Assembly: GCA_021768625.1 (NCBI GenBank)
Contig: JAETUM010000001.1
Span: forward strand, 1 to 64,000
Direction: 5' to 3'
Length of the DNA: 64,000 bases
Source: Candidatus Stoquefichus sp.
GTDB taxonomy: Bacteria > Bacillota_I > Bacilli_A > Erysipelotrichales > Coprobacillaceae
In this document: positions 43,626 to 64,000 of the stretch, one piece after another
How the letters are laid out: each line of letters opens with the position of its first letter
Numbering within the stretch: the first letter of the stretch is position 1
Translations under genes and position numbers: made by a program
The notes under the pieces: model-generated
The model's input: only the letters and a program-made list of their open reading frames with translations
Told to the model about the DNA's origin: nothing
Databases searched by the model: none

Positions 43626-43772
43626 ATACACTTATAATTCATTAAAAAACATAATATAGTATATTTTCCAAATATATCTATTCTGAATACTAAAACAAAT
43701 TATGCTTAAACTTTACTTTCAAAACTAAAATGTCAGAAAAATTTTATATTAATTTCACTTATATTTATGTAT

Positions 43773-44958: not shown

Positions 44959-44961
44959 AAG

Positions 44962-47238
44962 TTATACATCTCCTTTTAAGTATATTTTTGCCTTAAAACC
45001 TCGTTCTATACTTTTATTATCTGTTAAATCTATACTGCCACTATAACCCTCTATAATTGACTTAACTATTCCCATTCCCATTCCAGTTCCAATTAATTCA
45101 CCAAATTCATCTCTTCTATCCGTTTCAAATTGATTTAAAATTCTATTAGGATTCTTTTTGTACTCCTCTGAAAGCCCTAATCCATTATCCTCATATTCAA
45201 TTTCTAATTCTGTATCTAAATTTATTTTTACTTTTATCTCTTTATTTACACTATCTTCTTTATCAAACGAAGCAATACTATTAGTAATCAAATTATTTAA
45301 TATAGTTTCAATTTCATATGGAAAGCAATTAAACATAACAGTAGGATCAATACTTTCTAATACTAAAGATATTCCTTTTGGAGCTAATAATTCATTCCAA
45401 TTTTGAAATAAATTTTCTAAATGATCCACAATATCTATTTTTTGCTTTTTTCGCTTGTTTTTTCTTAATGAATTAATTGTAATTTCAAACCAAGAATTTA
45501 AACTTTTTCTGACATTGTAAGAATCCTCTAATGCTTTTTTACAAATATCTAAATCGTTTCTATTTAAAGCATTTAAGGCTGTTCTTGTTTTACTTCCTAA
45601 CAATAATGTTAGTGCCTTTAGTTCATGAATATATGTGTTTGTTACTATACCAGTTGCGGCTAATGTCATCAATAAGTTATTTTCATCTATCAAATCCTTT
45701 ATCTCTTCATTTTTCTTATCAATTACTTTTTGTGCGTCAACTGCTGAAACTGTTACATTTAATGTAGGCTGAGAAGTAGAGATATTTTCTTTACCACTTT
45801 CTTCTTCATTTTTTAACTCTTGTTTTGCAATTTCTGCAATTTGACTTTCTAATCTTTCAGTTTCTTCAATAATATTATTGTATTCTCTTAAATTTCTAAA
45901 TACATATTGTCTATCAATTTCAAATAAAGATATCACATAGCAAATTGTTTCTTTTAATGCTAAAAATTCTTTTGTTTCTACAATACCTTCTCTATTAGAT
46001 TGATCCATTAAATTATCATTTGTTCTCGAAATATTGATTACGCCAAATATTTGATCGCATCTAACTTTCCAACTTCCTTTTCCTGTTATTGCAGCGGGTG
46101 ATTTTGCTTTTTTTCTATCTAATAGCAACCAATCATAACTTGAAGTATTGTACTCTCCATAAGGTCTAACCCTAAAACTATCACGATATAGCTTAATACC
46201 TGTAAATATTTCATTAACTTTTTTTGGCGAAGGATATCTATAAAAATATTTTTCTTTATCTTTTTTTGTAGTATTTAACTTAGTAAAATAGAGTTCTCCA
46301 TCAAAATTCCCTGCAAATCCTTCATTGAATCCTGGTAACATTTCTGTAACATCCAAATTATATTCTATTGGTGCAGAATCAAAATATTTTTTATCCACTT
46401 CACTAAAACCCTCAAAATTATGTTCCTTTAATGTCATATTTATTTTATCAAACTCATTAATTAAATCAAATTCATTTCTATAAATGCTGACTAAAGCTCT
46501 ATCACCAGTTACTTTGAAGGTTATTTTGTAATCATAATTAAAATCCTCAGCGTTTACTAATACTTCTGCTTCATCAATATTAAATCTATTACAAAATGTA
46601 TAAATTTTAAATTGTTTAGAAATATTGATTGGTATTAATGAACGCAAATTATCCATAATTTTATTGATTCGTGCCTCAGACCACTTATCCCTAAGCCCAG
46701 ATAATTTAAAAATTGTTCCAGTTTCAAATTCAACATTATTTATTAATTGGTTTATGTAATCATTATGAACATCTTTTAAAAACTCTTTAACAGTAATATC
46801 AGTTTTATCCAACTCAGCAGTTATATCAGTGATATTACTGTCCCCTTCAAAATCTTTCCAATTTACTTTCCATAACAATTTTTCATTATCGTTAATTGTA
46901 AGCATTTCACAAAAATCTGCAATTCTATCTAAAGCAAATCGTCCTATTCCCTTAGCTCCAGTTTGGACACGACCTTTTTTACTAATATACTTATTCCTTT
47001 TGGTAGAACGACCAATTGTCATCCAATGGTTAATAATAATATTTTCTGTCATTCCACAACCATTATCAATTAAATAAACATTGTCATCTATATCATCATA
47101 ATACAAAATACAAATTGAGGAATCTGCATCATATGTATTCTTAACAAGTTCTAAAATAGCCCCATTTAATGTAGCAACATTTTCTCTACCTATCAATCTA
47201 GCTGTATATGCATTAACATTAAAATTAACTTTTGACAT
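44962..47238 (-). CDS. Protein with two GHKL ATPase domains (Hsp90/MORC-like plus histidine-kinase-like)
   Basis: A 758-residue protein. The N-terminal GHKL ATPase has N box LELVKNTYDAD (29-39), DNGCGM (58-63) and GAKGIGRFA (94-102), as in Hsp90, MutL and MORC proteins, followed by a beta-rich and coiled region. From about residue 525 comes a second signalling unit: a helix with IHELKAL that could be an H box, then a histidine-kinase HATPase with NNLITNSIASF, EDNGLGLS and GTGMGMGIVKSI. Two nucleotide-binding modules in one chain, beside a receiver-like protein and an HNH nuclease, suggest a sensor that detects DNA state and signals by phosphotransfer. That mechanism is inference. Confidence 0.8.
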   Translation of the reverse strand: MSKVNFNVNAYTARLIGRENVATLNGAILELVKNTYDADSSICILYYDDIDDNVYLIDNGCGMTENIIINHWMTIGRSTKRNKYISKKGRVQTGAKGIGRFALDRIADFCEMLTINDNEKLLWKVNWKDFEGDSNITDITAELDKTDITVKEFLKDVHNDYINQLINNVEFETGTIFKLSGLRDKWSEARINKIMDNLRSLIPINISKQFKIYTFCNRFNIDEAEVLVNAEDFNYDYKITFKVTGDRALVSIYRNEFDLINEFDKINMTLKEHNFEGFSEVDKKYFDSAPIEYNLDVTEMLPGFNEGFAGNFDGELYFTKLNTTKKDKEKYFYRYPSPKKVNEIFTGIKLYRDSFRVRPYGEYNTSSYDWLLLDRKKAKSPAAITGKGSWKVRCDQIFGVINISRTNDNLMDQSNREGIVETKEFLALKETICYVISLFEIDRQYVFRNLREYNNIIEETERLESQIAEIAKQELKNEEESGKENISTSQPTLNVTVSAVDAQKVIDKKNEEIKDLIDENNLLMTLAATGIVTNTYIHELKALTLLLGSKTRTALNALNRNDLDICKKALEDSYNVRKSLNSWFEITINSLRKNKRKKQKIDIVDHLENLFQNWNELLAPKGISLVLESIDPTVMFNCFPYEIETILNNLITNSIASFDKEDSVNKEIKVKINLDTELEIEYEDNGLGLSEEYKKNPNRILNQFETDRRDEFGELIGTGMGMGIVKSIIEGYSGSIDLTDNKSIERGFKAKIYLKGDV

Positions 47239-47257
47239 ATAATCACTCCCTTCGCTT

Positions 47258-48667
47258 TTAATATTGGTAATTTTTTATATCATTTACAGAAATTCTTACA
47301 GATGTCCCATTTGATTTGATACCAACTATATTTGCATAGTCAATAAATCTTTGACTTGTTAATATTTCAATAGCTCTATTTAAGTCATTATTTTCTTTAC
47401 TTGTAATAACTATTCCTGAATAAGGAATAACATTTTCATCCAATCTATTTATTATCACTTGTTTAGATATAATTGTTGACATCAACAATTTCTCTTGATT
47501 CAAATGTGATAAAGCTTGAGATCTTCCATATTCATACCACTGTGCTGAAACATCCTTTTTTCTTTTATCTAACTTTTCTCTAAATCTATTTAAGTATTGG
47601 AATGTTCCTGGATATTTTTTCTGAAATTTTGGACCGATTCTTACCAGTTTCCCATTATAGTAATTATATGGGAAAATAATTTTCTCTTCTTTATTCAGTG
47701 TAAGTCCTCTTGGACTAGCCGCATCTCTAACAATTTCTTTTTCTATAGAATCTTCTCCAACAATAATATATTGTTCATTTTCTTCAAATTCTTTTAAAAC
47801 AAAAGCTTCATTCAAGAGAGTTGCAATTGAAATGAAAACATCATAATTATCTCCAAACGTATTATCATACTTTATATTTTCATTCAAATTATAAAAAAGC
47901 CATTTATTGTCTAAAGACTCTTTATTTATGTTGTATTCTATATGCTTGGACATATTTCTATATTTAATGTTACTAACTTCTTCATTATCACATATAATAA
48001 TAGATGATGTTGTAAGTCTCTTATTAAATAACTTTATATCATCATAATCTATTATTCCTCTAATTTTAGGTAAAATTAATTCTCGAATCTTTTGCCCAAA
48101 TCTATTTTTGAATATATTATTAGGAATCAGATATACAAGTTTTCCACTTTGATTTAATACTGAAAGAGATTTTTCTATAAATGCATAATAATAGTCAGGT
48201 TTACCTTCCTTACAAGATATAAAGTTTGACTTTATATATATTCTTGTCTCTATATCTAAATCCGAATAAGAAATATAAGGTGGATTACCAATAATATAAT
48301 CAAACTTCATCTGTATATCCTCTTTTAGAAAATCCCTCTCAAAAATTTTCCAATCAACATTTTTAATCCCAAAATTTTTAACTTCATTATTTATTCTTTC
48401 TAGACATTTTTGTAAATGCTTACTATCTATTTCATATGCATAAATATCTTTTTCTAAACCTTTTTTTATTTCTTTTATAGAATAACCTTCATCTAATGAT
48501 GTATTTATATACATTTTTACTATCTCAACTAATATATTTCCGTCACCACATGAATTTTCTAATACTTTTTTTCCAAATAAAGAGGAGTTATACTCAATAG
48601 TATTTAGCATAAAATCAACTATATCTTTTGGAGTAAAAACTTGACAATTTTTATAAAACTCCTTCAT
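47258..48667 (-). CDS. N6-adenine DNA methyltransferase (TaqI/Eco57I-like)
   Basis: A 469-residue gamma-class methyltransferase. Motif I LENSCGDGNIL binds AdoMet, IIGNPPYISYSD is the catalytic NPPY, and FTPKDIVDFML near the start is motif X. The C-terminal part (about 270-469) holds the target-recognition region. It methylates adenine in an unknown site. It is the first gene of the operon with the double-GHKL, receiver-like and HNH genes, 19 bases upstream of the GHKL gene. This is the modification arm if the set is a restriction-like system. Confidence 0.88.
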   Translation of the reverse strand: MKEFYKNCQVFTPKDIVDFMLNTIEYNSSLFGKKVLENSCGDGNILVEIVKMYINTSLDEGYSIKEIKKGLEKDIYAYEIDSKHLQKCLERINNEVKNFGIKNVDWKIFERDFLKEDIQMKFDYIIGNPPYISYSDLDIETRIYIKSNFISCKEGKPDYYYAFIEKSLSVLNQSGKLVYLIPNNIFKNRFGQKIRELILPKIRGIIDYDDIKLFNKRLTTSSIIICDNEEVSNIKYRNMSKHIEYNINKESLDNKWLFYNLNENIKYDNTFGDNYDVFISIATLLNEAFVLKEFEENEQYIIVGEDSIEKEIVRDAASPRGLTLNKEEKIIFPYNYYNGKLVRIGPKFQKKYPGTFQYLNRFREKLDKRKKDVSAQWYEYGRSQALSHLNQEKLLMSTIISKQVIINRLDENVIPYSGIVITSKENNDLNRAIEILTSQRFIDYANIVGIKSNGTSVRISVNDIKNYQY

Positions 48668-48749: not shown

Positions 48750-50312
48750 TTAGATTTTTTGATTAATAACAAACCCACCTTTAAATTGAACTTCTATTTC
48801 ATTTTTATTTTTTACTACTATCTTATTAATTAACTTTCTTATTAGTGTTTCATCATATTCCGTTATTGGTTTAAGATTTATATCCATCTTCCCATTATTT
48901 TTTAAATCATTTTGATATTTAAGTCTTCTATATTCATTATTTAAATCATCTCTTTGACTTTTATATTCCTTCATCTTTGTTCCTATAGCAATCAGCTTAT
49001 CTTCATTATCAGGATCTAACATAATCTGTTTTATAGTTTCCTTAAGTTTATCCATTTGCTCTTCAATCTGTCTTATCTTATTTTGTAAATCATCAATATC
49101 TAATGTCGTTTGGGAACTTTTTTCATTGATTTGACAATTTCTATATGAATTAATCGATTCAACAAGTGCATGTTTCAAATTATCTTCTATTACATAATCT
49201 GAATGACATTTTACACCTTTTCTTAGTCGTTCTTTACATCCATATCTTACCTCTATATTTCCATTATGTTTTGTCCATGATTTTCTTCGCATAGGACTAC
49301 CACATTTCCCACAAACAAGTAAGTTGCTTAAGACATATTTTGAATTAAGTATCTTCTCACCACGCTTCTGTTTCCATTTATCATTAATATCTGCCATCCT
49401 TTCTTGTACTGCAATAAATATTTCTTTTGGTACAATAGCTTCATGAGAGTTTTCTACAATATATTTTCTAACCTCTCCATTATTTTTAACTCGTTTATGT
49501 GTTAAGAAATCTTTTGTATAGCTTTTTTGATTAATGCAGTTACCTGCATATTTTTCATTTCCTAATATACTTCTAATAACTGATGGATTCCATACATCTT
49601 TTCCTGTAACTGTTGGAACCCTTTCATTTGTTAGTATATCAGCAATTTCTCTATAATTGAGTCCCTTCAAAAAGAGGTTAAATATCCTTTTGACAATTCT
49701 TGCTTCTTCATTAATAATAAGTTCACCATTTTCATCTCGATCATACCCAAGAAATCTGGAGGTAACAAGCATGACTTCTCCTCTTTCAAATTTAGCTTTA
49801 TAACCCCATTTCACATTTTCTGATATGCTACAGCTTTCTTCCTGAGCAACACTTGAAGCAATCGTTAAATGTAATTCAATGTTATCTTCTAATGTATTAA
49901 GATTTTCCTTTTCAAAATATACTCCTATCCCTCTTTCTTTCAGCATTCTACATGTCATGAGAGAATCAACAGTATTTCTAGCGAATCTACTCACAGATTT
50001 AGTAATAATCAAATCAATTTTACCTTGCTTGCACATCTTAATCATTTTATTGAATCCTGTTCTTTTAAAAGTATTCGTACCGCTTATCCCTTCATCAGTA
50101 AATACATCAACAAATATCCAATTAGGATTACTTTGAATATAATCAGTATAATAACACACCTGATTATTATAGCTGGTTATCTGATCTTCATCATCAGATG
50201 AAACTCTGGCATACGCACAAACTCTTAACTTTCGCAATGGATTTTTAAAATCATTCTTTATGAGCAATGGATTAACTTCATCTATAGTAATTCTCTTTGT
50301 TGCTCTAGCCAT
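48750..50312 (-). CDS. Large serine recombinase (integrase/resolvase family)
   Basis: A 520-residue site-specific recombinase. Catalytic domain: CAYARVSSDD with the nucleophile Ser (about 32-41), TDEGISGTNT, KSVSRFARN. Then a recombinase domain (about 180-290), a zinc ribbon LVCGKCGSPMRR...GCKER...VKCHSD, and a coiled coil (about 405-470). All catalytic parts are intact. It is the last of three tandem recombinase genes, with AGGAGGGG before the ATG. It probably moves the surrounding island; attachment sites were not found. Confidence 0.92.
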   Translation of the reverse strand: MARATKRITIDEVNPLLIKNDFKNPLRKLRVCAYARVSSDDEDQITSYNNQVCYYTDYIQSNPNWIFVDVFTDEGISGTNTFKRTGFNKMIKMCKQGKIDLIITKSVSRFARNTVDSLMTCRMLKERGIGVYFEKENLNTLEDNIELHLTIASSVAQEESCSISENVKWGYKAKFERGEVMLVTSRFLGYDRDENGELIINEEARIVKRIFNLFLKGLNYREIADILTNERVPTVTGKDVWNPSVIRSILGNEKYAGNCINQKSYTKDFLTHKRVKNNGEVRKYIVENSHEAIVPKEIFIAVQERMADINDKWKQKRGEKILNSKYVLSNLLVCGKCGSPMRRKSWTKHNGNIEVRYGCKERLRKGVKCHSDYVIEDNLKHALVESINSYRNCQINEKSSQTTLDIDDLQNKIRQIEEQMDKLKETIKQIMLDPDNEDKLIAIGTKMKEYKSQRDDLNNEYRRLKYQNDLKNNGKMDINLKPITEYDETLIRKLINKIVVKNKNEIEVQFKGGFVINQKI

Positions 50313-50336
50313 ACTGTTAGCCCCTCCTTCCTATAA

Positions 50337-51209
50337 CTAAATATTTATAGACTCTTCAATAATCTGATTATTAATAAGTTCTATATAGACCTTCTTGTTT
50401 GTTGAATCTATAATGATTTCTTTTAAAATTTCAGTTATCATTTTATAATCCAACATATCTCTATTTCTCATCATCGATAAACTCTTATAAACTTTCTGAT
50501 ATAAAAGCATATGATTTTCAATCAGGGAATCATCATATTCAAATTGAGCTTTCATCTGTGCAATATTTAAAAGATAATTTATATCCTTTTTATTTGTTAT
50601 TCCATCTTCCAAACTGTGTTGAAGATGTCTAATCTCTGCTGAATGCTGATGATGAATTATCTTTGGATGGATCTCAATTTTCCGTGGATTATCTATCAAT
50701 TTTTTAAATGCATTATTTATTGAATTTTCTAATTCATCATTTAAAATGACACATGAATTGCAATATCTTTTACCTTTATTCTTTCTTGTATTACAATACC
50801 ATTCAATTTTTGAATGATTATATCTATTTTTATATGGATGATATAAACAATGGCAACTATCACATTTTATAAATCCTATGAATGGATGTTCTATTTTTAA
50901 TTTTGGTGTTTTATTAATGATATTAGTATTAGCTTTTTGAAAGTCAGCTGATTGTATAATCTTTGGATATATCCCTATACCTGTATAATCTTGATTTCTA
51001 ATAATCTGTAATATCCTTGGATGATACCAGGCTTTAGCATTATAGAAAGTTCTAACTTTATCGTTATTTAAAATTCTTGCTATATGATTTGCACTTTTGC
51101 CTTCCTTTGCATATTTAAAAATTCTTTTTACAATTTCAGCTTCATCTTTTTTGATAATAATTTTTCCATTCTTTATTGCATATCCTACATAAACATGATG
51201 TTCATCCAT
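50337..51209 (-). CDS. Recombinase-domain protein lacking the catalytic resolvase domain
   Basis: A 290-residue protein that matches only the middle and C-terminal parts of large serine recombinases: a recombinase domain (AEIVKRIFKYAKEGKSANHI, about 25-44), a zinc ribbon (IKCDSCHCLYHP, WYCNTRKNKGKRYC) and a coiled-coil end. The serine catalytic domain is absent. It starts just after the upstream recombinase stop, with its site inside that gene, so it is not a fresh truncation but a set-piece; it may be an accessory or directionality factor. Confidence 0.82.
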   Translation of the reverse strand: MDEHHVYVGYAIKNGKIIIKKDEAEIVKRIFKYAKEGKSANHIARILNNDKVRTFYNAKAWYHPRILQIIRNQDYTGIGIYPKIIQSADFQKANTNIINKTPKLKIEHPFIGFIKCDSCHCLYHPYKNRYNHSKIEWYCNTRKNKGKRYCNSCVILNDELENSINNAFKKLIDNPRKIEIHPKIIHHQHSAEIRHLQHSLEDGITNKKDINYLLNIAQMKAQFEYDDSLIENHMLLYQKVYKSLSMMRNRDMLDYKMITEILKEIIIDSTNKKVYIELINNQIIEESINI

Positions 51210-51211
51210 TT

Positions 51212-52783
51212 TTATTCACCAACCCTTTCCATAATTTCTAATCCGTTAATCAAAATAAATTTTAATTGCTGATGATCAATAGCTATTATTTTTTGAACTA
51301 TGACTTCAAATAAACTTTCATTAAATTCATCTGATATTTCACAATTATCAAATATAGACATCATTGTTTTTGTATTCTCTATTTCTTTGCTAATATCATA
51401 CATATCTATATATTGGTGATACTGTTTTCTCAGTTCATCTATCTGTGCCAACAACGCATGATTTAATTCTTCTATAAATTCTTCAGTATATATTTTTATC
51501 GAGTAGTGTATATCTATATTTTCAATCTTTTTATATAGAGCTTCCATTTGATTATGTAAATCAACAATCATATGTCTATCTGCTTCTTCATTGATATATG
51601 TCAAATCCTTTAAATAGTTTTTAAGGATATGGGAATTTGAAATAAGTTTATTAGATAATCTGATAAAAGATTGATAAACATCATCCTCTAGATATCTTTT
51701 AAAAGAACATTTTGCTTTATCTTTGATATGTCCTGTACATGCATATGCAAAGTAGGATTCATTGTTATTTTTTTGTATTTTGACACGTTTTAATTTTGAC
51801 CCACATTGATTGCATTCAATAATCCCAGATAATGGATATCTATTTTTATATTTATTGCTGTTACAATTACAAGACATCTGTTCTCTACGGATTTCAAAAA
51901 TCATTTGTACTTTTTCAAAAATATCTTTACTTATATAAGGTTCATGATTGTCATGATAATGATACCTTGGTAATTGACCTCTATTTATTTTTGTTTGAAA
52001 AGTTGTTGTATCAGTATAAGTTTTCTGTAAAACAAGTTCTCCAGTATAAATAGGATTTTTAAGAACCTCTCTAAACCCACTTTCACACCAGTAGATGCCT
52101 TTATTACTTTTTACACCATGTTCATTTAAGTAATGAGCAATTTTAGCTGCACTCATTCCATTGATAAAAGAGTTAAAAATATGATACACATATCTTTCAT
52201 TTTCCTTATCTTTGACAATTTCTTTATTTTCTAATTTATACCCTAATGGAAGACATGAAGGTATAAATGTTCCTCTTTTCATTCTTCTTCTAATAGACCA
52301 TAAAGTATTTGTTGAAATATTTTCAGATTCACTTTGAGCTAAAGCAGATCGAACAGATAAATAATGCTCGTTTTTTAAAAAAAGAGTATGGATGTTTTCC
52401 TCTTCGAAAAATACATCTATACCCTTTTCTCTTAATTCTCTACATATTTTTAATGATGTCACTATATCTCTCGCAAATCTTGAAATTGATTTACATATAA
52501 TCATATCAAACAATCCTCTATAAGCATCATCTATCATTTGATTAAATTCATCTCTATTTTTTGTCTTTCTGCCACTGACTCCTTTATCTGTATAAATTTC
52601 AACCAATCTCCAGTTTGGTTGAGAATCAATGAACGCTTTAAAGTAAGAAATCTGTGAGGCATAAGAATTTAATTGTTCCTTGCTTGACGAACTAACTCTA
52701 CAGTATGCACAAACTCTAATAATCGCTTCTGATTGAATCAAAGGTAGCACTGTCGGTTCTATTATTCTTACTTCCATATTCAT
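51212..52783 (-). CDS. Large serine recombinase, first of three
   Basis: A recombinase of about 523 residues when started at the ATG at 52783 (AAAGGAG eight bases upstream). Catalytic part: CAYCRVSSSSKEQ with the Ser, YTDKGVSGRKT, CKSISRFARD. Recombinase domain YHIFNSFINGMSAAKIAHYL, zinc ribbon IECNQCGSKLKR...YACTGHIKDKAKCSF, and a coiled coil follow. It opens the three-gene recombinase run, and with the last gene it supplies two active catalytic proteins, as in some two- or three-recombinase mobile elements. Confidence 0.92.
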   Translation of the reverse strand: MNMEVRIIEPTVLPLIQSEAIIRVCAYCRVSSSSKEQLNSYASQISYFKAFIDSQPNWRLVEIYTDKGVSGRKTKNRDEFNQMIDDAYRGLFDMIICKSISRFARDIVTSLKICRELREKGIDVFFEEENIHTLFLKNEHYLSVRSALAQSESENISTNTLWSIRRRMKRGTFIPSCLPLGYKLENKEIVKDKENERYVYHIFNSFINGMSAAKIAHYLNEHGVKSNKGIYWCESGFREVLKNPIYTGELVLQKTYTDTTTFQTKINRGQLPRYHYHDNHEPYISKDIFEKVQMIFEIRREQMSCNCNSNKYKNRYPLSGIIECNQCGSKLKRVKIQKNNNESYFAYACTGHIKDKAKCSFKRYLEDDVYQSFIRLSNKLISNSHILKNYLKDLTYINEEADRHMIVDLHNQMEALYKKIENIDIHYSIKIYTEEFIEELNHALLAQIDELRKQYHQYIDMYDISKEIENTKTMMSIFDNCEISDEFNESLFEVIVQKIIAIDHQQLKFILINGLEIMERVGE

Positions 52784-52895
52784 TAATCTCCTTTCTGTTA
52801 GCACATACATTACCACACTAATTTGTTAATTGCTAGTGAATTTCTAAAGACAGTTGCAGTTATTTTTGACAGTTGTTTTATAATTTCTAAAAATC

Positions 52896-55133: not shown

Positions 55134-55586
55134 TTACAAATTTGAATTTATTTTATTCTTTAACTTTTTTAATATTTTTTTCTTTCTATTCTGTAAAGTC
55201 ATAACTGGATTGCCTAATTCCTTTGATAATTCTCTTAAGGTTTTCCCATCAATATACAAACCTTTAATTAACATTTGTTCTTCATATGTCAAATTTTTAA
55301 TTTCATCTAATATTTGTGAAATAATAACTTCTTTATTATAATCAACATTCTTTCCAATAATATCTAGTAATGTATGTCCTTTATTATTGGTATAATCATA
55401 ACTTATCAAATTAGCTTTGATGTCTTTTTTTATATCCCTGTTCATTTTTAAATAACTACAAAAACATACAGAATAAATTTCTTTATTTACTTCTATCAAT
55501 CCTCTATCTGTATTAAAGTAATAGTGTTTCATTCCTAACTCATCTATCTTAATCCAAAAATAATCTTTTTTATAATCATTCTTCAT
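55134..55586 (-). CDS. Sigma-70 region 4-like regulator of the mobile element
   Basis: A 150-residue protein. The N-terminal half has the sequence type seen in element-borne sigma-like proteins (FWIKIDELGMKHYYFNTD). The C-terminal half has a region-4 helix-turn-helix: LTYEEQMLIKGLYIDG, then LRELSKELGNPVMTLQNRKKKIL. Region 2 is missing, so it is not a full sigma factor and more likely regulates element genes. GGAGGAAA precedes the ATG. The gap 54851-55133 is AT-rich and otherwise empty. Confidence 0.7.
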   Translation of the reverse strand: MKNDYKKDYFWIKIDELGMKHYYFNTDRGLIEVNKEIYSVCFCSYLKMNRDIKKDIKANLISYDYTNNKGHTLLDIIGKNVDYNKEVIISQILDEIKNLTYEEQMLIKGLYIDGKTLRELSKELGNPVMTLQNRKKKILKKLKNKINSNL

Positions 55587-56326
55587 TTTACTTTTCCTCC
55601 TACTTCATTGAAATTTTGATTATTTAAATTTCATAAAATGGAGGTGATCTATTTTTACTCATTAAAAAACTCCGCAAATTATATTTGGACAGGCTTTTTT
55701 TAGTTATCCCAATCCAAATAAATGTTTTAATATTTTTCATAGGACGTTTTTAATATTTTATTTAATAAAAAAAAGCATCTGATTTTAGATGATCAGATTT
55801 AGAAAATTAAATATTTTATATGATTTCATGTCACTTAAATTATATTTTAATTTACTCCCTTGCTTATAAACAAATTTTTTTGTTTTTTTCAATTCTAGAA
55901 CAAATAATAACTCATCTTGTATAATATTAGAAAAATATCTTTATATCTTTTTTATATATCTTAATTCTTGTTAGCAACATATAATATTTATGACAAAAAT
56001 TCATTGATTTAAAATTTATAAATTTAATAATATATTGTCATTTTGATTAATAAGATACGAATCTAACATTAAAATATTCTCTTTTTCTTTTAAACAATTC
56101 TATTTCATGTTTAATCTAAGTTGATTTCTATATGAAATAAAACAGACACCATAATTCTTCTTGTAAAACTCCATTATATTTCCTGTATTATTGCAAAATA
56201 AGATTTTTTCATTAGTTTATATACATTAAAAATTACAAAATATTTCTTTTATAATTTTTTCATTTACTCGTTTTTATTTTTTTAATTAAGTTTCATCCAA
56301 GATAAATTTTTTTACTCATTATTTTG
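55587..56326. other. AT-rich intergenic region without a gene
   Basis: No frame with a ribosome-binding site and coding character was seen on either strand. It has a small TCTGAT/ATCAGA hairpin near 55779-55797 after an A run. It separates the recombinase island from the RiPP operon. Confidence 0.5.
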
Positions 56327-56383
56327 ATAAAAAAAAGACAAGCATTTTAAAAGATAAAAATCTTATCCTCATTAAATACTTGT
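56327..56383 (-). terminator. Terminator of the RiPP operon
   Basis: On the minus strand ACAAGTATTT pairs with AAATGCTTGT (10 bp with one G-T) and is followed by a T run, about 100 bases after the last operon gene. Confidence 0.75.
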
Positions 56384-56479
56384 TTCATTTCTTTTAATCA
56401 ATTGTATTACCTTTTTAAATATTTTTACTTCAATTCAAATATTCTCTGTAATTTAAAAAAGATGTATCTTAAATCATAA

Positions 56480-56902
56480 TTACTTATTTCTTCTTTTTAA
56501 TTCAGCATTATCCAAAATATTCCAAATCAAATTTTCCGTATTTATTATATCATCTATAATATGATATTCATCTTTAAAGACAATACTATTCTTTTTAAGA
56601 ACTATCATAGCTTCCTTAAAAATATCTCTTGTAATATTATTAGAAGTACCATCAAATTGTATTTTTTCTTTGTTTTTTAATTCTATAACAAAAATCACAA
56701 AATGTTGATTTTGTCCCGCTGCTAAAGGAACATTGTTCCAACCAACTTTTATATATTCTATATCTTCAAATTTTACTTGAGTATTATTTATTTTTTTTTG
56801 CATTTTATCTACAAAACTTTGTGGATGATAAATAATAATTTCTTTATTTTCATCATCTACTGCCCAACCAGATTTTTTACTACCTAATAAAATTTTTTTC
56901 AT
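56480..56902 (-). CDS. Unknown protein, last gene of the RiPP operon
   Basis: A 140-residue soluble protein overlapping the reductase gene by four bases (ATGA). It begins MKKILLGSKKSGWAVDDENK with a strand-rich N-terminal half (VKFEDIEYIKVGWNNVPL, FVIFVIELKNKEK) that looks like a PH- or bacterial-PH-like barrel, then helices. No catalytic motif or membrane segment. As no LanI or LanFEG gene is seen, a role in self-protection or as a modification helper is possible but unproven. Confidence 0.6.
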   Translation of the reverse strand: MKKILLGSKKSGWAVDDENKEIIIYHPQSFVDKMQKKINNTQVKFEDIEYIKVGWNNVPLAAGQNQHFVIFVIELKNKEKIQFDGTSNNITRDIFKEAMIVLKKNSIVFKDEYHIIDDIINTENLIWNILDNAELKRRNK

Positions 56903-57624
56903 TTCATTTTCTCCTTTTTTTCTATTTTGTATTTTAATACTTCTTCGATGTTATTATAACATAAATAATTATTTACCCAATATTTTAGCTCATTATCATC
57001 AATATCCAAATCCTTATATGGTGTAAAATGATTATGATAATATTTAAATACTTGATTTAATAATTGTGGTATTTCAAAATTATTATTTATATATAAATCA
57101 ACGAAAGTTTGAATTTTTGAAATATCATCATCTTTTAATATTTTCTCTTTATCAAAATATCCAATTTTTAAATCTAATGATATTCCTAAATAACTAAAAA
57201 TCATTTCCATATATCCTTCTACCATTTCCTTTCCTGATAAAGAAGTAGAAGTAAATAAAATTCCATGCTTTCCTATAAAAGGCATAAGATGCATTAAGTA
57301 TGCAATTCTATCTAATAGTGACTTTAAATCACCAGGTACATTATTAATATAAACTGGAACACAAAAAATAATTATATCTGAATCACTTATATCTTGGATA
57401 AACAGTTCTTGATCATCATGAAATATACATTTCCCATTTCTAAAACAACTTTGACACCCACTACAATTCCTTATATTATAGTCTTCAATATATTTGATTG
57501 TCTTATTTATCTTCTCTCCTTTTTTTAAAAAATTTTTTTCTATTTCAGTGTTAATTAACTCAGCAAAGTGATTACTCACCCCTCTTTTGCGTCTACTAGC
57601 AATTAAAGTATATATATTTATCAT
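56899..57624 (-). CDS. Flavodoxin-fold NAD(P)H-dependent FMN reductase
   Basis: A 241-residue flavoprotein. The N-terminal strand with SRRKRGVSNH is the phosphate loop; IRNCSGCQSCFRNGKC is the Cys-rich segment found in iron-sulfur flavoprotein relatives; SDIIIFCVPVYINNVPGDLK is the flavin-contact loop. Beyond residue 180 a helical tail is added. Family members pass hydride to small substrates. Beside a LanB dehydratase the natural guess is reduction of dehydroalanine or dehydrobutyrine to D-amino acids (a LanJ-like role), or another tailoring step. GGAGAAAT precedes the ATG. Confidence 0.78.
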   Translation of the reverse strand: MINIYTLIASRRKRGVSNHFAELINTEIEKNFLKKGEKINKTIKYIEDYNIRNCSGCQSCFRNGKCIFHDDQELFIQDISDSDIIIFCVPVYINNVPGDLKSLLDRIAYLMHLMPFIGKHGILFTSTSLSGKEMVEGYMEMIFSYLGISLDLKIGYFDKEKILKDDDISKIQTFVDLYINNNFEIPQLLNQVFKYYHNHFTPYKDLDIDDNELKYWVNNYLCYNNIEEVLKYKIEKKEKMK

Positions 57625-57644
57625 TATTTCTCCTTTTTAATTAT

Positions 57645-57675
57645 AGCATTGCTTACCATATAGATAAGCAATGCT
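57645..57675 (-). promoter_or_regulatory. Stem-loop directly after the precursor gene
   Basis: A perfect 11-bp stem, AGCATTGCTTA with TAAGCAATGCT, and a nine-base loop. No T run follows, so it is more likely an mRNA-stabilising or read-through hairpin that gives more precursor than tailoring-enzyme message, as is common after lanA genes. Confidence 0.6.
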
Positions 57676-57680
57676 GAAAT

Positions 57681-57872
57681 TTAACAATCACTACTTTCAG
57701 TATAATTTGAACCTGTAGTGATTTGGGATGTAGCAGTTAATAAACTTACTGTTGCTTCTATACAAGGAGCAGATGAAGTTGTAACTGTTGTAAGACTTGC
57801 AGGTGATGCACCATCATCATTACCTTTGTCCCCTACTAAATCCAAATCAAAATCTTTTAATTTTTCAGACAT
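57681..57872 (-). CDS. Class I lanthipeptide precursor (LanA-like, nisin-type leader)
   Basis: A 63-residue peptide. The leader has the FxLD box as FDLDLV at residues 8-13, the RRE-binding motif of class I leaders, then an acidic GDKGNDDGASP that closely follows nisin's leader, whose GASPR is the NisP cleavage site. Here the last leader residues are GASP at 21-24 followed by Ala, without the Arg. The likely core, residues 25-63, has 18 Ser/Thr and only two Cys (C37 and C63, the last residue), so at most two (methyl)lanthionines can form. AAAGGAGGGT precedes the ATG. It lies between the lanC-like and reductase genes. Confidence 0.85.
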   Translation of the reverse strand: MSEKLKDFDLDLVGDKGNDDGASPASLTTVTTSSAPCIEATVSLLTATSQITTGSNYTESSDC

Positions 57873-57923
57873 ATTTACCCTCCTTTCTTTTGATTTTATA
57901 TCTAAACAATTTTTTCAAACTGT

Positions 57924-59015
57924 CTAAATCATATAATATCTATAAAAAAGTCTCTTACCCTCTTCATTAAGAATTTCTATAATTTTTTCATTTAATATTC
58001 CATTGATTATAGAAATTTCTTTCACACTAACTTCTGACAGAAAATCTTTATTTATAAATTTATTATTCAATGAATTTATAAATTTGTCTTTTACTTCTTC
58101 ACTTATCATTTTATATTCGAACAAATTCATTATCATTTTTTTACATCCAAAATATCCTGAACACACATTTTTTTTGGTAATACTATATTTTTTGTAATTC
58201 ACTATTTTAAAGATTTTAATTATTTCATTATTAAAATTTTTATTTAAAAACCATTTTAAAATACTATAGACATACAAATATCCAAAAATACCATTGCCCC
58301 AACTTAACTCATCAGATGATATTCCATATATAATTTTTTTATGCTTTATTTTTTGATAAAATTTATTTAAATAATATTTTTTTTCATCACTAGTTAGATA
58401 ACTTGTTTGAACAATATACAACAATATACCAGAAATACCATGTGCTATCCCTAAAGGAACTTTATCAAAGTCTTTTTTTTCACTCATTGTTTCACACATT
58501 TGTAATAATACTTTTCTCAATACTATATTATCTTCTCCAATTAATTCCATATAATTCAAAATACCTATCAAACCATTAAAGTAGTCAATATAAGTTTTAA
58601 ATAATGTAAAATTATTTTTTATATTTAATACGATTTGATTGTTTTCTATTAATTTAAAGTAATTTAAAATGTATTTATTTAGTTCATTAAACATTTTTTC
58701 ATATCTATTAGTTAATTTTCCTAAAATGTATAACATATAACCCACTCCTGCAAATCCATATCCAAGACCTACAGTGTTTTTTTCTTCTTTTATAAAGTTC
58801 TTTATTTCTAATATAAAATAATCAATACATTCTTTATTTTCAAAATAATACATTTTTCCTTTATCTGTATATAATGCTAAATATGATATATAAATTATTA
58901 AGTCCCTATATGCCATATATTTTTCGTATTTGTTAAATAGTTTTAATTTTACAATCTGTCCTTCTAAATTTAATATTAGTCCAGTTTCATCTTCTTTTAA
59001 AATTAACTTGCTCAT
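57924..59015 (-). CDS. LanC-like cyclase with degenerate zinc site
   Basis: A 363-residue alpha-toroid protein. Repeats seen are GLGYGFAGVGYML (83-95), YFNGLIGIL, PLGIAHGISGIL (187-198) with the conserved His192, SWGNGIFGY (238-246) and VCSGYFG (284-290). In active LanC cyclases the last two read WCYGxPG and CHG and give the three zinc ligands; here Cys is Gly240 and His is Ser286, so only Cys285 remains. The fold is kept but zinc-dependent cyclisation is doubtful. It overlaps the glycosyltransferase gene by four bases. Confidence 0.8.
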   Translation of the reverse strand: MSKLILKEDETGLILNLEGQIVKLKLFNKYEKYMAYRDLIIYISYLALYTDKGKMYYFENKECIDYFILEIKNFIKEEKNTVGLGYGFAGVGYMLYILGKLTNRYEKMFNELNKYILNYFKLIENNQIVLNIKNNFTLFKTYIDYFNGLIGILNYMELIGEDNIVLRKVLLQMCETMSEKKDFDKVPLGIAHGISGILLYIVQTSYLTSDEKKYYLNKFYQKIKHKKIIYGISSDELSWGNGIFGYLYVYSILKWFLNKNFNNEIIKIFKIVNYKKYSITKKNVCSGYFGCKKMIMNLFEYKMISEEVKDKFINSLNNKFINKDFLSEVSVKEISIINGILNEKIIEILNEEGKRLFYRYYMI

Positions 59016-60322
59016 ATATTATCCAATTCCAATTCAGATAATATTTGTTTTATTACAGACTCACTATCATAACTATCTAATTTTAAATTTTCAAACCCTT
59101 TACTGTAATCTGTATTAAAAATAGTAACTATATTTTTCTTAAAATATTCAATTGGATCAGGCAAATGATACATTGAAAAACCTATTTTTAAATTTTCAAG
59201 AATTAAACCATTTAGTCTTTGCTCACTTGATATAGGAAATACAATCATAGGGGTATTAAAAAATATCGATTCTTTTATACTATTTAATCCTCCTGATGTT
59301 ATGAAGAACTTACAATGCATTAACACATATTTTTGAGGTATAAATTTTTTAACCGCTACCTTTTCACTTATTTTCATTTCAATAATTAAATTTTGTATTA
59401 ATTCAGTCGCTTTTCCACCTGAAATAATAATTTTATATTTGCTAAAGTTATCTAAAATAGTCTTTAATATTTCTCTGTAATATTCTATTTCTCTACTCAT
59501 AAATGATCCTGTAGATATATATATTAAATTATTATCCTTACATAATTCAATAATGTCTGAAGAGATATTACTTTCTATAGCAAAGTCTCTTTTTGTAGGT
59601 GGATAAATTATTATGTTTTTTCTGTTTGGTAATTTAGGTTGTAAGAATTTTTGTGAAAATATTATATTGTATTTTTCATCAGGATCATATTGGTAAAATG
59701 GTCTAATATAATCCTCATTTAATTCCAAAGATATTTTTTTATATATGTTTTGTATATTTTCTTTAAATTCTTGTAAATATTTTTTTGTTACAAACGGAAG
59801 AAAGTTTATAATTCCCAAAAATATAGGTAGGATAGTATCATAGTTTTTCATTAAGTAATCCCATGAATATAGATTATTTGTTATATAACCTATAGTTTTA
59901 ATATTATTAAATTTTTCTTTCTCTTTTAATTTCATCCAATATATATCTGTAGAATCTCGAAACACAATACTTGGATCATATTGTTCTATTTTCGTTTCAA
60001 TAAAATTAGCCACACTAGAATGATAATTAAAAATTTCAATAGCATCTTTTTCTAAAAAAGCATCATAGAGCTTCATAAAATCCTTTCCTCTGTTATATTT
60101 TTCAAACTTTTTTTCTTTTTCTTTAATAAGTTTGTGATGTTTCTTTTCCCAATAGCTATTTGGATAAGCAATGTATGGTATCCCATTATTTTTACAATAT
60201 TCAATATTATTGCTATGAATAAAACATATTACATTATGTCCATTTTTCAAAAAATATTGAATTAAACCCTTTATAGGAATTATATGACTCACTGAATAAC
60301 TTGTTAAAAAAACTACTTTCAT
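59012..60322 (-). CDS. GT-B glycosyltransferase (GT1/MGT-like)
   Basis: A 436-residue glycosyltransferase of the UDP-glucuronosyl/macrolide type. The N-terminal half starts VVFLTSYSVSHIIPIKGLI with the acceptor His; the C-terminal nucleotide-sugar half has IIYPPTKRD, IYISTGSFMS, VKKFIPQKYVLMHCKFFITSGG and NTPMIVFPISSEQRLNG. No signal or membrane segment. It overlaps lanB upstream and lanC downstream by four bases each, so it is an integral tailoring enzyme, most likely adding a sugar to Ser/Thr or another residue of the peptide. Confidence 0.85.
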   Translation of the reverse strand: MKVVFLTSYSVSHIIPIKGLIQYFLKNGHNVICFIHSNNIEYCKNNGIPYIAYPNSYWEKKHHKLIKEKEKKFEKYNRGKDFMKLYDAFLEKDAIEIFNYHSSVANFIETKIEQYDPSIVFRDSTDIYWMKLKEKEKFNNIKTIGYITNNLYSWDYLMKNYDTILPIFLGIINFLPFVTKKYLQEFKENIQNIYKKISLELNEDYIRPFYQYDPDEKYNIIFSQKFLQPKLPNRKNIIIYPPTKRDFAIESNISSDIIELCKDNNLIYISTGSFMSREIEYYREILKTILDNFSKYKIIISGGKATELIQNLIIEMKISEKVAVKKFIPQKYVLMHCKFFITSGGLNSIKESIFFNTPMIVFPISSEQRLNGLILENLKIGFSMYHLPDPIEYFKKNIVTIFNTDYSKGFENLKLDSYDSESVIKQILSELELDNI

Positions 60323-63192
60323 TTTTTTTCTCCTTTCCTTAATACACTTTTTAAACTATAAAATACATTTTCTATATTACTCATCAATTCATTTTCTTTA
60401 ACTCTATTAATTGTAAAAACTCTATTATAATTCATGTGAAATATACTAAGTATAATATCTTTGGAATTGTGTTGATTAATAAGTTCAGGAAGCATATTAT
60501 CAATTTTCATATTAAATGTTTTACTTATTTGCTGAATCCATTGAAAATCTTCATCTTTTTGATTACTTGTATAATTAACGATAATATATTTTCTTAATTT
60601 ATTAATATTTATATTTCTCTGATAATATTTCTTGTATATTGACATCAACTCTTCTATATCATAATATTTGCTAACTATTTCAATTAAATTTAAAGTCCAT
60701 ATAAAGTATAATTTATATCTTGCGTGTAAATCTTTATATGTTTTATTTAAAATTTTTTTACTTATTATAGTAGATTCAATAAACAATTCTTCTACTCTAT
60801 ATATTAAATTAACTCCACCATATCTATTTATTTCAGGTATATATTCATCAATGATATAACAATTAATAATACCTTTTTTCTCAAAATCACTTAAATATTT
60901 TTTTATTTTACTTATTAAAACATCTTCTTTACCTTTTAATTGTATACGTAATCTAATATGACTTTTAGGATCTTTATATCTTATATAAAACCAGTTCGTT
61001 ATGTTTTTATCAACAATTTTATTTACAATAGTCTCCAAATGATTAACTATGAAAAAATCCATAAATACTTCATTCATATATAATTTAATGCTTAGCCAAT
61101 CAGTATCTCGCTTTTCTATATATATATCCTTATTTAATAGCTTTTCTTTTGTCTTTGATTTATATTTAATTTGAAAAACAGATTCATTGATATATGCATT
61201 ATTTTCATTAAAATCATGTAATAAAACATTATCTTCGTTAAAATATACCTCTCTAATATTTATATATCCCTTTGTCATTAACTGCTTTCTTAAAATTTCC
61301 ATATTGATAGACTGAGATAAATCTAATAATAAATAATTATCCTCAGAGCCAAAATATACTCTAGTACATAAATTATATTTCTTTAACAATTTTAATATTT
61401 TACTTTTGAATTTAATCTCATTATCACATATAAAATCATCTTTTTTTAACCTTATTTCAAATGGTCTTATAATAAAATTTTTATACACTATTTTAGGGCA
61501 TATGATAGAATTTTTAAATGTTTCAGCAATTTGTTCAAATAAAGAAAATATATTTATTTTTGCACATTGTTCTATGGTTGCTATACCTTTAAAAAATTCG
61601 GGTGCAAAATTTAAATTAGTTACATTATTAATAGTAAAATGAATTATTCTACCAGTTTTTATATTAATAAACCTAAGTTTACCATTTATTGGACAAACAT
61701 AAATATCATTTATATCTAGAGAGATTTTATCTCTTATCTCTGTATTTGTTCCATATTCTAAATAATACTTACTTTCACTATAACAATTTAATACATTCAA
61801 AATTCTAGATTTTTTTGGATGATATAATAATTCAACATTATCATAATCATCTTCAATTTCAGATTTAATACTCTCTCTCACTTTATAAAAGCGCCCTAAC
61901 GATTTATATGCCATATCACTTCCTATCAATGGTGTTGTTACGTAATAATAACCATTATCGTTTTTAAAAACATTTAATGCTATTTCAAATTGTGTTTTTA
62001 GTAATTGATTTTTTTCTATACGATCATCAACAATTACATCGGATAAATCTAATGTATTACTATTAATTTTATATAGATATTTATTGAAACAATTAAATTT
62101 TCTACCTTGCTTTTTAGGCATTCCTATTCCTTTTATTTCATTAAATACAATAGATACAGGCACCGCATTATAATTATATTTTTCAATAAATTTCATATAA
62201 TAGTCATATAAGCAATAATCATTTTCACAAAATATACTTAAAAAGTTTATATAATCTAAAATATCCTCTTTAATCTTTTCATCCATATATATTATTTGGT
62301 TGTGAATTAAATCTACAGAAACAGTATTATCAACTTTATATATTTGATTCAACCTTTGTATGATGTTCAAATAAATTTCTGTTCCCATTCCTACTGTACT
62401 AGTATTATAGGTTTCAAAATCCACTTTAATTAACTTCAAAGCATCAATATAATTTTTCAATTCTATCTCATATTTTTTTAACACTCTTATTAAATTTTCA
62501 ATATTTCTTTCTTCTAAAGATGATAAACGTAAATCTGAAATTAAAAATCCATTTTCCAATAGTTTTAAAATATACTGATGAATTATTTCTGTTTCAATAT
62601 CGCTATATTCAGAGCAAATACAATTTATTAAATTTTCAATAGTTTCAAATTTATTAAAAATTACTTGTTTTAAAATATTAAAAGGCTTCTGTTTCTTTAT
62701 CAAAACATGATTCTGTAAATATACTTTTTCATCATGAAAACAATCTATCCAATTATTTAAAACTAAATCATCATTTATCTCTAACGTATTACTTATAGTA
62801 ATTCTTAGAGACTTACCAATTTCTTTTTCAGCATTTTTTAAAAATCCAACTATCCATTCATAATCTAACAATAAATTCTTTTTATAATTTATTGTATTAA
62901 ATGAATTGATTTTATCTTTACAATTAGTAAATTCACCCTGAGATACAAATGCATTTAATCCATATGGTGTTGTCCTCGTAGATGCTCTATTTAAATACTT
63001 AATCAAGGAAATAGAACAATTCTTGTTATTACCTTTCCCAGTAATCATTGATTCTAATAATGATCTTGAATTAATAGCAATATTCTCACTAAATCTTTCT
63101 TTACAGTATTGTATAATATTATCTTCATCAAATTTAAAGTTTACTGGTTTTATTGGTACTCTCAAATAAAATTTATCACTTACTTCGTACAT
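60319..63192 (-). CDS. Full-length class I lanthipeptide dehydratase (LanB)
   Basis: A 957-residue tRNA-Glu-dependent dehydratase when started at the ATG at 63192 (GGAGGT seven bases upstream); a GTG nine bases earlier is inside that site. The N-terminal glutamylation part has FYLRVPIKPVNF, the RASTRTTPYGLNAF motif near residue 95 and downstream blocks; the C-terminal elimination part (about 700-957, SpaB_C) has WLSIKLYMNEVFMDFFI and WFYIRYKDPKSHIRLRI. It activates Ser/Thr with glutamate and eliminates it to give dehydroalanine/dehydrobutyrine. Both domains are in one chain, as in nisin-type systems. Confidence 0.92.
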   Translation of the reverse strand: MYEVSDKFYLRVPIKPVNFKFDEDNIIQYCKERFSENIAINSRSLLESMITGKGNNKNCSISLIKYLNRASTRTTPYGLNAFVSQGEFTNCKDKINSFNTINYKKNLLLDYEWIVGFLKNAEKEIGKSLRITISNTLEINDDLVLNNWIDCFHDEKVYLQNHVLIKKQKPFNILKQVIFNKFETIENLINCICSEYSDIETEIIHQYILKLLENGFLISDLRLSSLEERNIENLIRVLKKYEIELKNYIDALKLIKVDFETYNTSTVGMGTEIYLNIIQRLNQIYKVDNTVSVDLIHNQIIYMDEKIKEDILDYINFLSIFCENDYCLYDYYMKFIEKYNYNAVPVSIVFNEIKGIGMPKKQGRKFNCFNKYLYKINSNTLDLSDVIVDDRIEKNQLLKTQFEIALNVFKNDNGYYYVTTPLIGSDMAYKSLGRFYKVRESIKSEIEDDYDNVELLYHPKKSRILNVLNCYSESKYYLEYGTNTEIRDKISLDINDIYVCPINGKLRFINIKTGRIIHFTINNVTNLNFAPEFFKGIATIEQCAKINIFSLFEQIAETFKNSIICPKIVYKNFIIRPFEIRLKKDDFICDNEIKFKSKILKLLKKYNLCTRVYFGSEDNYLLLDLSQSINMEILRKQLMTKGYINIREVYFNEDNVLLHDFNENNAYINESVFQIKYKSKTKEKLLNKDIYIEKRDTDWLSIKLYMNEVFMDFFIVNHLETIVNKIVDKNITNWFYIRYKDPKSHIRLRIQLKGKEDVLISKIKKYLSDFEKKGIINCYIIDEYIPEINRYGGVNLIYRVEELFIESTIISKKILNKTYKDLHARYKLYFIWTLNLIEIVSKYYDIEELMSIYKKYYQRNININKLRKYIIVNYTSNQKDEDFQWIQQISKTFNMKIDNMLPELINQHNSKDIILSIFHMNYNRVFTINRVKENELMSNIENVFYSLKSVLRKGEKK

Positions 63193-63232
63193 AATAAACA
63201 CCTCCTTTTTTCTTTATTATTTACATAAATAA

Positions 63233-63850
63233 TCAATATATCATTTTGTTTATAATAAATCCTTCTGCAAAATTTACATGTGATTTTATACCATTTAAGC
63301 GATCCTTAGCATCTATATATGATATCAAGTCTTGTTTTCTATTTTTATATTTTTTTATTTGAGTTGAATACATTCTAAGAACTTTCTTTTTATCTTCTTC
63401 AAATTCAGAAATATCTATAAAATAATTTGCTGTAAACTCAGTACTTGTTAATGATTCATAAAATATTAAATTTTTACATAATGACGAGATAGATAAAGCA
63501 TTTAATCCTATGTTCATGTGATCTTGATGCGAATCTTTATAATATTGACAAAAAATTGTATCTATACAATACTTTTTTATAATATTACTTAAAAAATCAA
63601 TAACCTCTGGATTATGTAATAAATATCCGTCTCTAATTTCACCAATAACTATTTCATCAACCTCAATATGAAGCAAAGCTTGTTTAATTTCACCTATTCT
63701 ATCTTTGTATGTTTTTTTCTCCCAATTTCCTCCATTTGTCATTACTAAATAAACAATCTTTTTTCCTTCTTTTTTTAATTTCATTAAACTTCCTACACAA
63801 CCCAATTCTATATCATCTGGATGAGCCCCTATTATTAAAATATTTTTCAT
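63233..63850 (-). CDS. PIG-L/LmbE-family deacetylase
   Basis: A 205-residue zinc deacetylase. The metal motif AHPDDIE at residues 9-15 and the second motif HQDH at about 109-112 are intact. The family removes acetyl from N-acetylglucosamine groups on lipids, mycothiol, bacillithiol and some natural products. Next to a glycosyltransferase it most simply unmasks an amino sugar (GlcN) on the RiPP or its carrier. AAGGAGATAATG precedes the start. It is the first complete gene of the operon in this window, 31 bases after the partial upstream frame. Confidence 0.88.
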   Translation of the reverse strand: MKNILIIGAHPDDIELGCVGSLMKLKKEGKKIVYLVMTNGGNWEKKTYKDRIGEIKQALLHIEVDEIVIGEIRDGYLLHNPEVIDFLSNIIKKYCIDTIFCQYYKDSHQDHMNIGLNALSISSLCKNLIFYESLTSTEFTANYFIDISEFEEDKKKVLRMYSTQIKKYKNRKQDLISYIDAKDRLNGIKSHVNFAEGFIINKMIY

Positions 63851-63882
63851 TTACATTATCTCCTTAACTGAATATTATTGTT

Positions 63883-64000
63883 CAATTATCTTCTCTGTTG
63901 TTAGTATATATACATTTTTTTCTATTTTCATCATTTTTAACGCAAACAACATTAATCAGTACGCAAATGCAAATTACTAAGAAAGATTCCTAATTATGTC
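63883..64000 (-). CDS. C-terminal end of a membrane protein, partial
   Basis: A frame open from the window end to the stop at 63883 encodes 38 residues: a hydrophobic helix FLVICICVLINVV followed by a charged tail CVKNDENRKKC and NNRED. This fits the last helix of a transporter. It is 32 bases upstream of the deacetylase gene on the same strand, so it may be the exporter of the RiPP. It is too short for a family call. Confidence 0.45.

What the first reader, a model, noticed from the sequence alone, without database searches (positions are those of the whole stretch)
56480..64000. RiPP operon joining a LanB dehydratase with a glycosyltransferase, a PIG-L deacetylase and a flavin reductase
Seen: overlapping genes for LmbE-like deacetylase, LanB, GT-B glycosyltransferase, LanC-like protein, a leader-bearing precursor, FMN reductase and an unknown 140-residue protein, ended by one terminator. 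Known: glycosylated lanthipeptides are rare, and PIG-L enzymes deacetylate GlcNAc groups in other pathways. Inference: the product could be a lanthipeptide-like peptide bearing a deacetylated amino sugar, perhaps with residues reduced to D-amino acids. I know of no described lanthipeptide cluster with this exact set, but could not search.
Basis: partly seen in the sequence, partly recalled or inferred. Interest (0 to 1): 0.86.

Follow-up and report, generated by a model that had tools for sequence, protein, structure and literature searches.

The report
Sugar-decorated class I lanthipeptide gene cluster
A gut bacterium of the Coprobacillaceae carries, on a mobile element, a gene set that should make a small modified peptide whose serines and threonines are dehydrated and partly turned into D-amino acids and which probably carries a sugar, and its ring-forming enzyme has lost the zinc site that such enzymes normally need.

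Summary
Seven co-directional genes at 56480-63850 (minus strand) encode a PIG-L deacetylase, a full-length LanB, a GT1 glycosyltransferase, a LanC-like protein, a class I LanA precursor, an FMN-reductase-type flavoprotein and a 140-residue PH-like protein, closed by a real hairpin terminator. Every LanB relative found in 316 genomes of the order (5 loci, 4 genomes) has the glycosyltransferase, the flavoprotein, an exporter and the 140-aa protein beside it, so this is a conserved cluster type, mostly in Coprobacillaceae with a decayed copy in Enterococcus ratti. LanB keeps all catalytic residues. PIG-L is the least fixed gene but 65-77% conserved where present. Likely product: a mostly linear class I peptide with D-residues and one sugar, resembling cacaoidin. 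Nothing has been shown chemically.

The parts
63233..63850 (-). PIG-L/LmbE family deacetylase, 205 aa
   Evidence: PF02585 1.8e-19; closest solved structure BshB1, 6p2t, 2.3e-13; HPDD and HxDH metal motifs present; 65-77% identical orthologues in sister clusters
60319..63201 (-). LanB lantibiotic dehydratase, 960 aa (GTG start)
   Evidence: Both LanB domains; profile matches NisB 4wd9 at 2.3e-104; catalytic residues R14, R72, R76, T78, D113, D297, R750, R752, E790, R793, H922 present
59012..60322 (-). GT1-type (GT-B) glycosyltransferase, 436 aa
   Evidence: UDPGT 1.6e-10, macrolide-GT family 9.7e-18; His13 and Asp123 conserved, donor-site HGG changed to SGG
57924..59015 (-). LanC-like protein, 363 aa, without a complete zinc site
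   Evidence: LANC_like 7e-20; profile matches NisC 1.7e-18; predicted fold best matches NisC; NisC Cys284 is Gly240 and His331 is Ser286 here, Cys285 and His192 kept
57681..57872 (-). LanA precursor, 63 aa, leader with FDLD box and GASP motif, core ...NYTESSDC
   Evidence: TIGR03731 E 0.0033
56899..57624 (-). FMN-reductase-family flavoprotein, 241 aa, with CX2CX2CX5C motif; LanJB-like
   Evidence: PF03358 2.7e-14; profile best solved match 1sqs (SP1951) 1e-29; relatives in lanthipeptide operons; Cys motif in all 7 class I members
56480..56902 (-). 140-aa conserved cluster protein, PH-like fold; possible immunity or peptide-binding protein
   Evidence: No family; homologues in all 5 complete clusters; model pLDDT 88, weak PH-domain fold matches
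56322..56398 (-). intrinsic terminator
   Evidence: hairpin followed by U-run, -17.7 kcal/mol, z -4.0

Best explanation
The operon makes a heavily tailored class I RiPP. LanB glutamylates and dehydrates many of the 18 Ser/Thr of the core. The LanC-like protein, lacking a zinc site, at most guides one or two thioether rings (two Cys in the core) by a zinc-free route, as class III cyclase domains do. The flavoprotein, a LanJB-like enzyme, reduces leftover Dha/Dhb to D-Ala/D-Abu. The glycosyltransferase adds one sugar, most likely to the invariant Tyr of the C-terminal Y-T-E-x-x-C motif. PIG-L de-N-acetylates that sugar (HexNAc to HexN), or the sugar's carrier. The peptide is exported by the ABC transporter encoded upstream and expression is probably controlled by the adjacent agr-type system. 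Shown: gene content, conservation, catalytic residues, loss of zinc ligands. Inferred: every chemical step, its order, the acceptor residue and the sugar.
For: LanB full length with all catalytic residues. LanB, GT, flavoprotein, exporter and PH-like protein always together in 5 complete clusters of 4 genomes; no LanB relative without them among 316 genomes of the order. LanB, GT and LanC trees agree on the inner clade. LanJB enzymes are NAD(P)H-dependent FMN reductases (PMC7268733; PMC7794033); flavoprotein relatives lie in Priestia mersacidin-type, L. sakei lactocin S and S. aureus two-component operons, and lactocin S has three Ser-derived D-Ala (PMC5808125). Cores hold 10-18 Ser/Thr but only 1-3 Cys, so most dehydrated residues cannot end in rings. 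Invariant core Tyr in all 8 precursors. GT keeps His13 and Asp123.
Against: No chemistry or expression data. PIG-L is absent from the complete L009 cluster and from L020 (+/-10 kb). No direct comparison with CrnJ or BsjJB sequences was possible; the four-Cys motif differs from the class II relatives. The GT donor sugar is unknown, and its HGG motif is altered. A conserved Tyr could serve another purpose, such as the ring system or a target-binding motif. No subtilisin-type LanP exists in the genome, so leader removal is unexplained.
Confidence: 0.58

Rival explanations
1. The glycosyltransferase and PIG-L do not touch the peptide: they make or modify a surface glycan, a small amino-sugar thiol or a cell-wall component for self-protection, while LanB, LanC and the flavoprotein make a plain D-residue peptide.
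For: PIG-L is 65-77% identical between clusters whose LanB and LanC are only about 28-36% identical, which suggests a constant substrate rather than the variable peptide; a 45% relative lies with glycan genes; its closest solved relative is BshB1; in Faecalibacillus one PIG-L lies with AgrB and ABC genes about 14 kb away.
Against: The GT overlaps lanB and lanC, diverges at the same pace as the peptide-facing genes (24-56%), is present in every cluster including the distant Enterococcus one, and was found only in LanB-bearing genomes of the samples searched. High PIG-L conservation also fits an enzyme that recognises only the sugar.
Confidence: 0.22
2. The LanC-like protein is a pseudoenzyme (scaffold for LanB or the reductase) and the product is linear, dehydrated and reduced, with free or otherwise used Cys.
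For: Two of three zinc ligands lost in window, L008, L009 and L016 and all three in L011; it is the only LanC in the genome; NisC ligand mutants give inactive nisin (PMC7296275); some precursors have a single Cys. Cys-free precursors modified to linear D-residue peptides are known (NpnJA, PMC5808125).
Against: The last Cys is invariant in all 8 precursors; the new motif WGNG is identical in five proteins about 30% alike, which implies selected function; class III cyclase domains work without the zinc ligands (PMC10301443).
Confidence: 0.35
3. The flavoprotein is an electron carrier or redox partner rather than a Dha/Dhb reductase: its CX2CX2CX5C motif suggests an iron-sulfur flavoprotein with another role, such as protection against oxygen or a different modification.
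For: The four-Cys motif is present in all 7 class I cluster members and incomplete or absent in the class II relatives.
Against: The family is linked to lanthipeptide operons in every context inspected, and the precursors have a large excess of Ser/Thr over Cys, as expected where D-residues are made.
Confidence: 0.2

Closest known systems
Class I lanthipeptides (nisin/gallidermin type)
   Same: Separate LanB with both domains and all catalytic residues, LanC-fold protein, leader with an F-D-L-D box and a GASP motif as in nisin
   Different: Zinc site of LanC lost; no LanFEG, LanP, LanD or LanRK of the usual type seen in the cluster; GT, PIG-L and FMN reductase added; no glycosylated class I lanthipeptide was found in the papers searched
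Carnolysin / bicereucin / lactocin S (D-residue class II lanthipeptides; LanJB)
   Same: Flavoprotein of the LanJB (FMN reductase) family or its relatives beside the synthetase; Ser/Thr-rich precursors
   Different: Those use LanM; here LanB/LanC; the flavoprotein here has a complete four-Cys motif
Cacaoidin (class V, lanthidin)
   Same: Predicted combination: few rings, many D-residues, one O-glycosylated Tyr (PMC8068269)
   Different: Different dehydration and cyclisation enzymes, F420-dependent reductase and GT2/GT4 enzymes; sugars are deoxyhexoses and no deacetylase analogue is known to me
NAI-112 (class III)
   Same: Glycosylated lanthipeptide whose class of cyclase domain works without zinc ligands
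   Different: LanKC synthetase, labionins, deoxyhexose on Trp
Bacillithiol deacetylase BshB1
   Same: Closest solved relative of the PIG-L protein, same metal-binding motifs
   Different: Below the NCBIfam BshB1 cut-off (96 against 182 bits); partner here is a GT1 rather than BshA

Membership tests
Class I lanthipeptide biosynthetic cluster | LanB with glutamylation and elimination domains and their catalytic residues | tested here: met
   (identity of NisB catalytic residues, and H922 = NisB H961, from memory)
Class I lanthipeptide biosynthetic cluster | LanA precursor with FNLD-type leader box and Ser/Thr/Cys core beside lanB | tested here: met
   MSEKLKDFDLDLV...GASP...; 8 precursors aligned
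Class I lanthipeptide biosynthetic cluster | LanC cyclase with zinc ligands (NisC C284, C330, H331) | tested here: not met
   Gly240 and Ser286 replace C284 and H331; only C285 kept. Fold itself is NisC-like
Class I lanthipeptide biosynthetic cluster | (Methyl)lanthionine in the product | not testable with these tools
   needs chemistry; two Cys in the core
LanJB dehydroamino-acid reductase | FMN reductase-family protein encoded in a lanthipeptide operon | tested here: met
   PF03358 2.7e-14; relatives in lanthipeptide operons
LanJB dehydroamino-acid reductase | Reduction of Dha/Dhb to D-Ala/D-Abu | not testable with these tools
   no assay; CrnJ and BsjJB sequences not at hand
GT1 glycosyltransferase | GT-B donor domain and N-terminal catalytic His with Asp partner | tested here: met
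   His13, Asp123 (dyad assignment from knowledge of GT1 enzymes)
PIG-L/LmbE de-N-acetylase | HPDD and HxDH metal ligands | tested here: met
   GAHPDDIELG and KDSHQDHMN
Glycosylated lanthipeptide | Sugar attached to the core peptide | not testable with these tools
   GT linkage only

The most novel reading that the evidence does not exclude
A class I counterpart of cacaoidin: a nearly linear peptide rich in D-Ala/D-Abu, with one ring made by a zinc-free LanC that evolved independently of the class III cyclases, and with a Tyr carrying a de-N-acetylated amino sugar. It would be a glycosylated and D-residue-bearing class I lanthipeptide and a zinc-independent stand-alone LanC.
Probability: 0.27. 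Interest if true: 0.78.

Novelty: new variant of a known kind. Interest (0 to 1): 0.57.

Why it matters
In the papers searched, D-residues from Ser/Thr were reported only in class II and class V lanthipeptides and glycosylation only in class III and class V. A class I system carrying both, with a cyclase that has dropped zinc yet keeps an identical replacement motif in five divergent proteins, would make the open question of zinc-independent cyclisation testable in a small stand-alone protein, and would offer a glycosyltransferase/deacetylase pair for putting a free amino sugar (a positive charge) on a peptide.

Tried and rejected
A LanB single-sequence scan of genome contigs found nothing; the GT alignment scan worked. 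A viral-contig scan with the GT alignment found none. Plasmid search with the GT gave only macrolide-type GTs over about 40% of the query, not the same subfamily. Thiopeptide reading (TIGR03891 hit on LanB) rejected: LanB is full length with both domains, and no other thiopeptide genes were seen in the operon. A second FxLD-leader ORF upstream (L007:7972-8199) was considered as a partner precursor, but its Ser/Thr/Cys-rich part is in another frame, so it is treated as a remnant. No agrD was found beside agrB. Papers naming SP_1951 could not be found, so its link to the pneumococcal lantibiotic locus rests on memory. A column-mapping step slipped in register after the first residues; residues were re-read directly.

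Full report
What is there. The window is the first 64,000 bases of a 97,881-base contig (C74) of a 2.92 Mb genome. At 56480-63850, minus strand, seven genes run head to tail with overlaps at three junctions: PIG-L deacetylase, LanB, GT1 glycosyltransferase, LanC-like protein, a 63-residue precursor, an FMN-reductase-type flavoprotein and a 140-residue protein. Pfam supports all but the last and the precursor; the precursor carries a nisin-type leader (MSEKLKDFDLDLV...GASP) with a weak TIGR03731 hit. A hairpin with a U-run, z -4.0, closes the operon.

The cluster is larger than the window. Upstream on the same contig and strand (L007 + 63,000) lie an IS200-type transposase (64,466-64,936), a 170-aa protein, an ABC exporter, AgrB, a 411-aa protein in the place of an agr-type sensor kinase (no Pfam hit), a LytTR regulator and then T4SS coupling protein and MobL relaxase genes. 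With two full and one partial serine recombinase at 48,750-52,816, the cluster looks like cargo of an integrative element.

Conservation. A LanB search of 43 genomes of the family and 316 of the order found LanB in only four genomes: the window's, G032, G033 and G013 (two clusters). Each of these five clusters has GT, flavoprotein, LanC, precursor, ABC exporter and the 140-aa protein. A public scan named some: Candidatus Stoquefichus massiliensis AP9 (L008/L015), Faecalibacillus intestinalis SNUG30099 (L010, L011), a Thomasclavelia MAG (L017), an uncultured 'Mycoplasmataceae' contig (L016) and Enterococcus ratti (L020) (neighbourhoods). The Stoquefichus lanB is interrupted, and the Enterococcus lanB is N-terminally truncated and its GT split, so some copies are decaying or badly assembled. 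LanB, GT and LanC trees recover the same inner group (window, L009, L016, with L008 where available), though LanC support is modest.

Enzymes. LanB aligns end to end with NisB and keeps every catalytic residue compared. The GT keeps the N-terminal His and its Asp partner; the donor-site HGG is SGG, TGG or AGG in the Coprobacillaceae group and HGG in Enterococcus. The flavoprotein's nearest plasmid relatives were inspected in three operons, all lanthipeptide (Priestia mersacidin-family; L. sakei lactocin S, directly after lanM; S. aureus LchA2/BrtA2-type). LanJB reductases are described as FMN-reductase-family proteins (PMC7268733), and lactocin S holds three Ser-derived D-Ala (PMC5808125). All seven class I flavoproteins carry CX2CX2CX5C; the class II relatives do not carry it whole. 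An iron-sulfur centre is therefore plausible but untested.

LanC without zinc. In NisC, Cys284, Cys330 and His331 bind zinc, and mutating them gives inactive nisin (PMC7296275). In the window LanC they are Gly240, Cys285 and Ser286. The same WCYG-to-WGNG change occurs in L008, L009, L011 and L016, with H331 replaced by S, N, N and Y; L011 also lacks the second Cys. L010 and L020 are canonical. The catalytic His (His192) is kept everywhere. The predicted fold still matches NisC best (TM 0.61, then LanCL1/2; pLDDT 77), and the genome has no other LanC. An identical replacement motif in proteins about 30% alike argues for selected function rather than decay. Class III cyclase domains lack the ligands and still cyclise (PMC10301443).

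Precursors. Eight distinct precursors align. Outside the leader, only a Tyr and the last Cys are invariant; Thr and Glu after the Tyr are in seven of eight (Y-T-E-x-x-C). Cores hold 10-18 Ser/Thr but 1-3 Cys. This supports a mostly unringed product with spare dehydro residues for reduction, and it makes the Tyr the best sugar-acceptor candidate, by analogy with cacaoidin (PMC8068269). This acceptor assignment is inference.

PIG-L. It is present in the window, L008 and L011 clusters, and about 14 kb downstream of the L010 cluster beside AgrB and ABC genes (L029); it is absent from L009, whose genome has only a different PIG-L elsewhere. Cluster copies are 65-77% identical, far above the other genes. 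A 45% relative lies among glycan genes in another family of the class. The best reading is a sugar-recognising deacetylase whose substrate does not vary with the peptide; an immunity or cell-envelope role is the main rival.

The 140-aa protein has a confident model (pLDDT 88) with weak PH-domain-like matches and may be an immunity or peptide-binding protein. No subtilisin-type protease exists in the genome, so the leader protease is unknown.

Novelty. No described cluster with this set was found in the paper searches, which cover only an open-access library, so prior description cannot be ruled out. Scored as a new variant of class I lanthipeptide systems.

Noticed in passing
L007:7972-8199 (contig C74:70972-71199), minus: A second class I leader (SFDDFNLDLQL) whose Ser/Thr/Cys-rich tail (SSASVCCATTT) is in another frame: looks like a decayed extra precursor upstream of the response regulator.
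   Followed up: partly
window 48750-52816: Two complete large serine recombinases flanking a partial one, all on the minus strand, probably the integrase module of the mobile element carrying the cluster.
   Followed up: partly
window 41689-48667: Possible defence island on the mobile element: Eco57I-type methyltransferase, a 758-aa protein with two GHKL ATPase domains, a 202-aa protein, a PtuB-like HNH protein and a protein with a weak LmuA hit; the ATPase and 202-aa protein have no PADLOC match.
   Followed up: partly
window 55134-55586; L009:16390-16920; L011:13341-13796: A small sigma-70 region-4-like protein lies near the lanthipeptide operon in several clusters, probably belonging to the mobile element.
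   Followed up: no
L029:8482-11141: In Faecalibacillus a lipoprotein-like gene and a FtsX-type permease/ATPase pair stand beside PIG-L: candidate immunity transporter.
   Followed up: no
L010:3914-5973: Aminotransferase-like and methyltransferase-like genes on the opposite strand about 2.3 kb from the LanC gene of the L010 cluster.
   Followed up: no
L016:774-974: A 66-aa ORF with a GVAPRS motif but no Cys, near a LanB/GT/LanC set; possibly an unusual precursor.
   Followed up: no
[quoted passage not shown]
   Followed up: no
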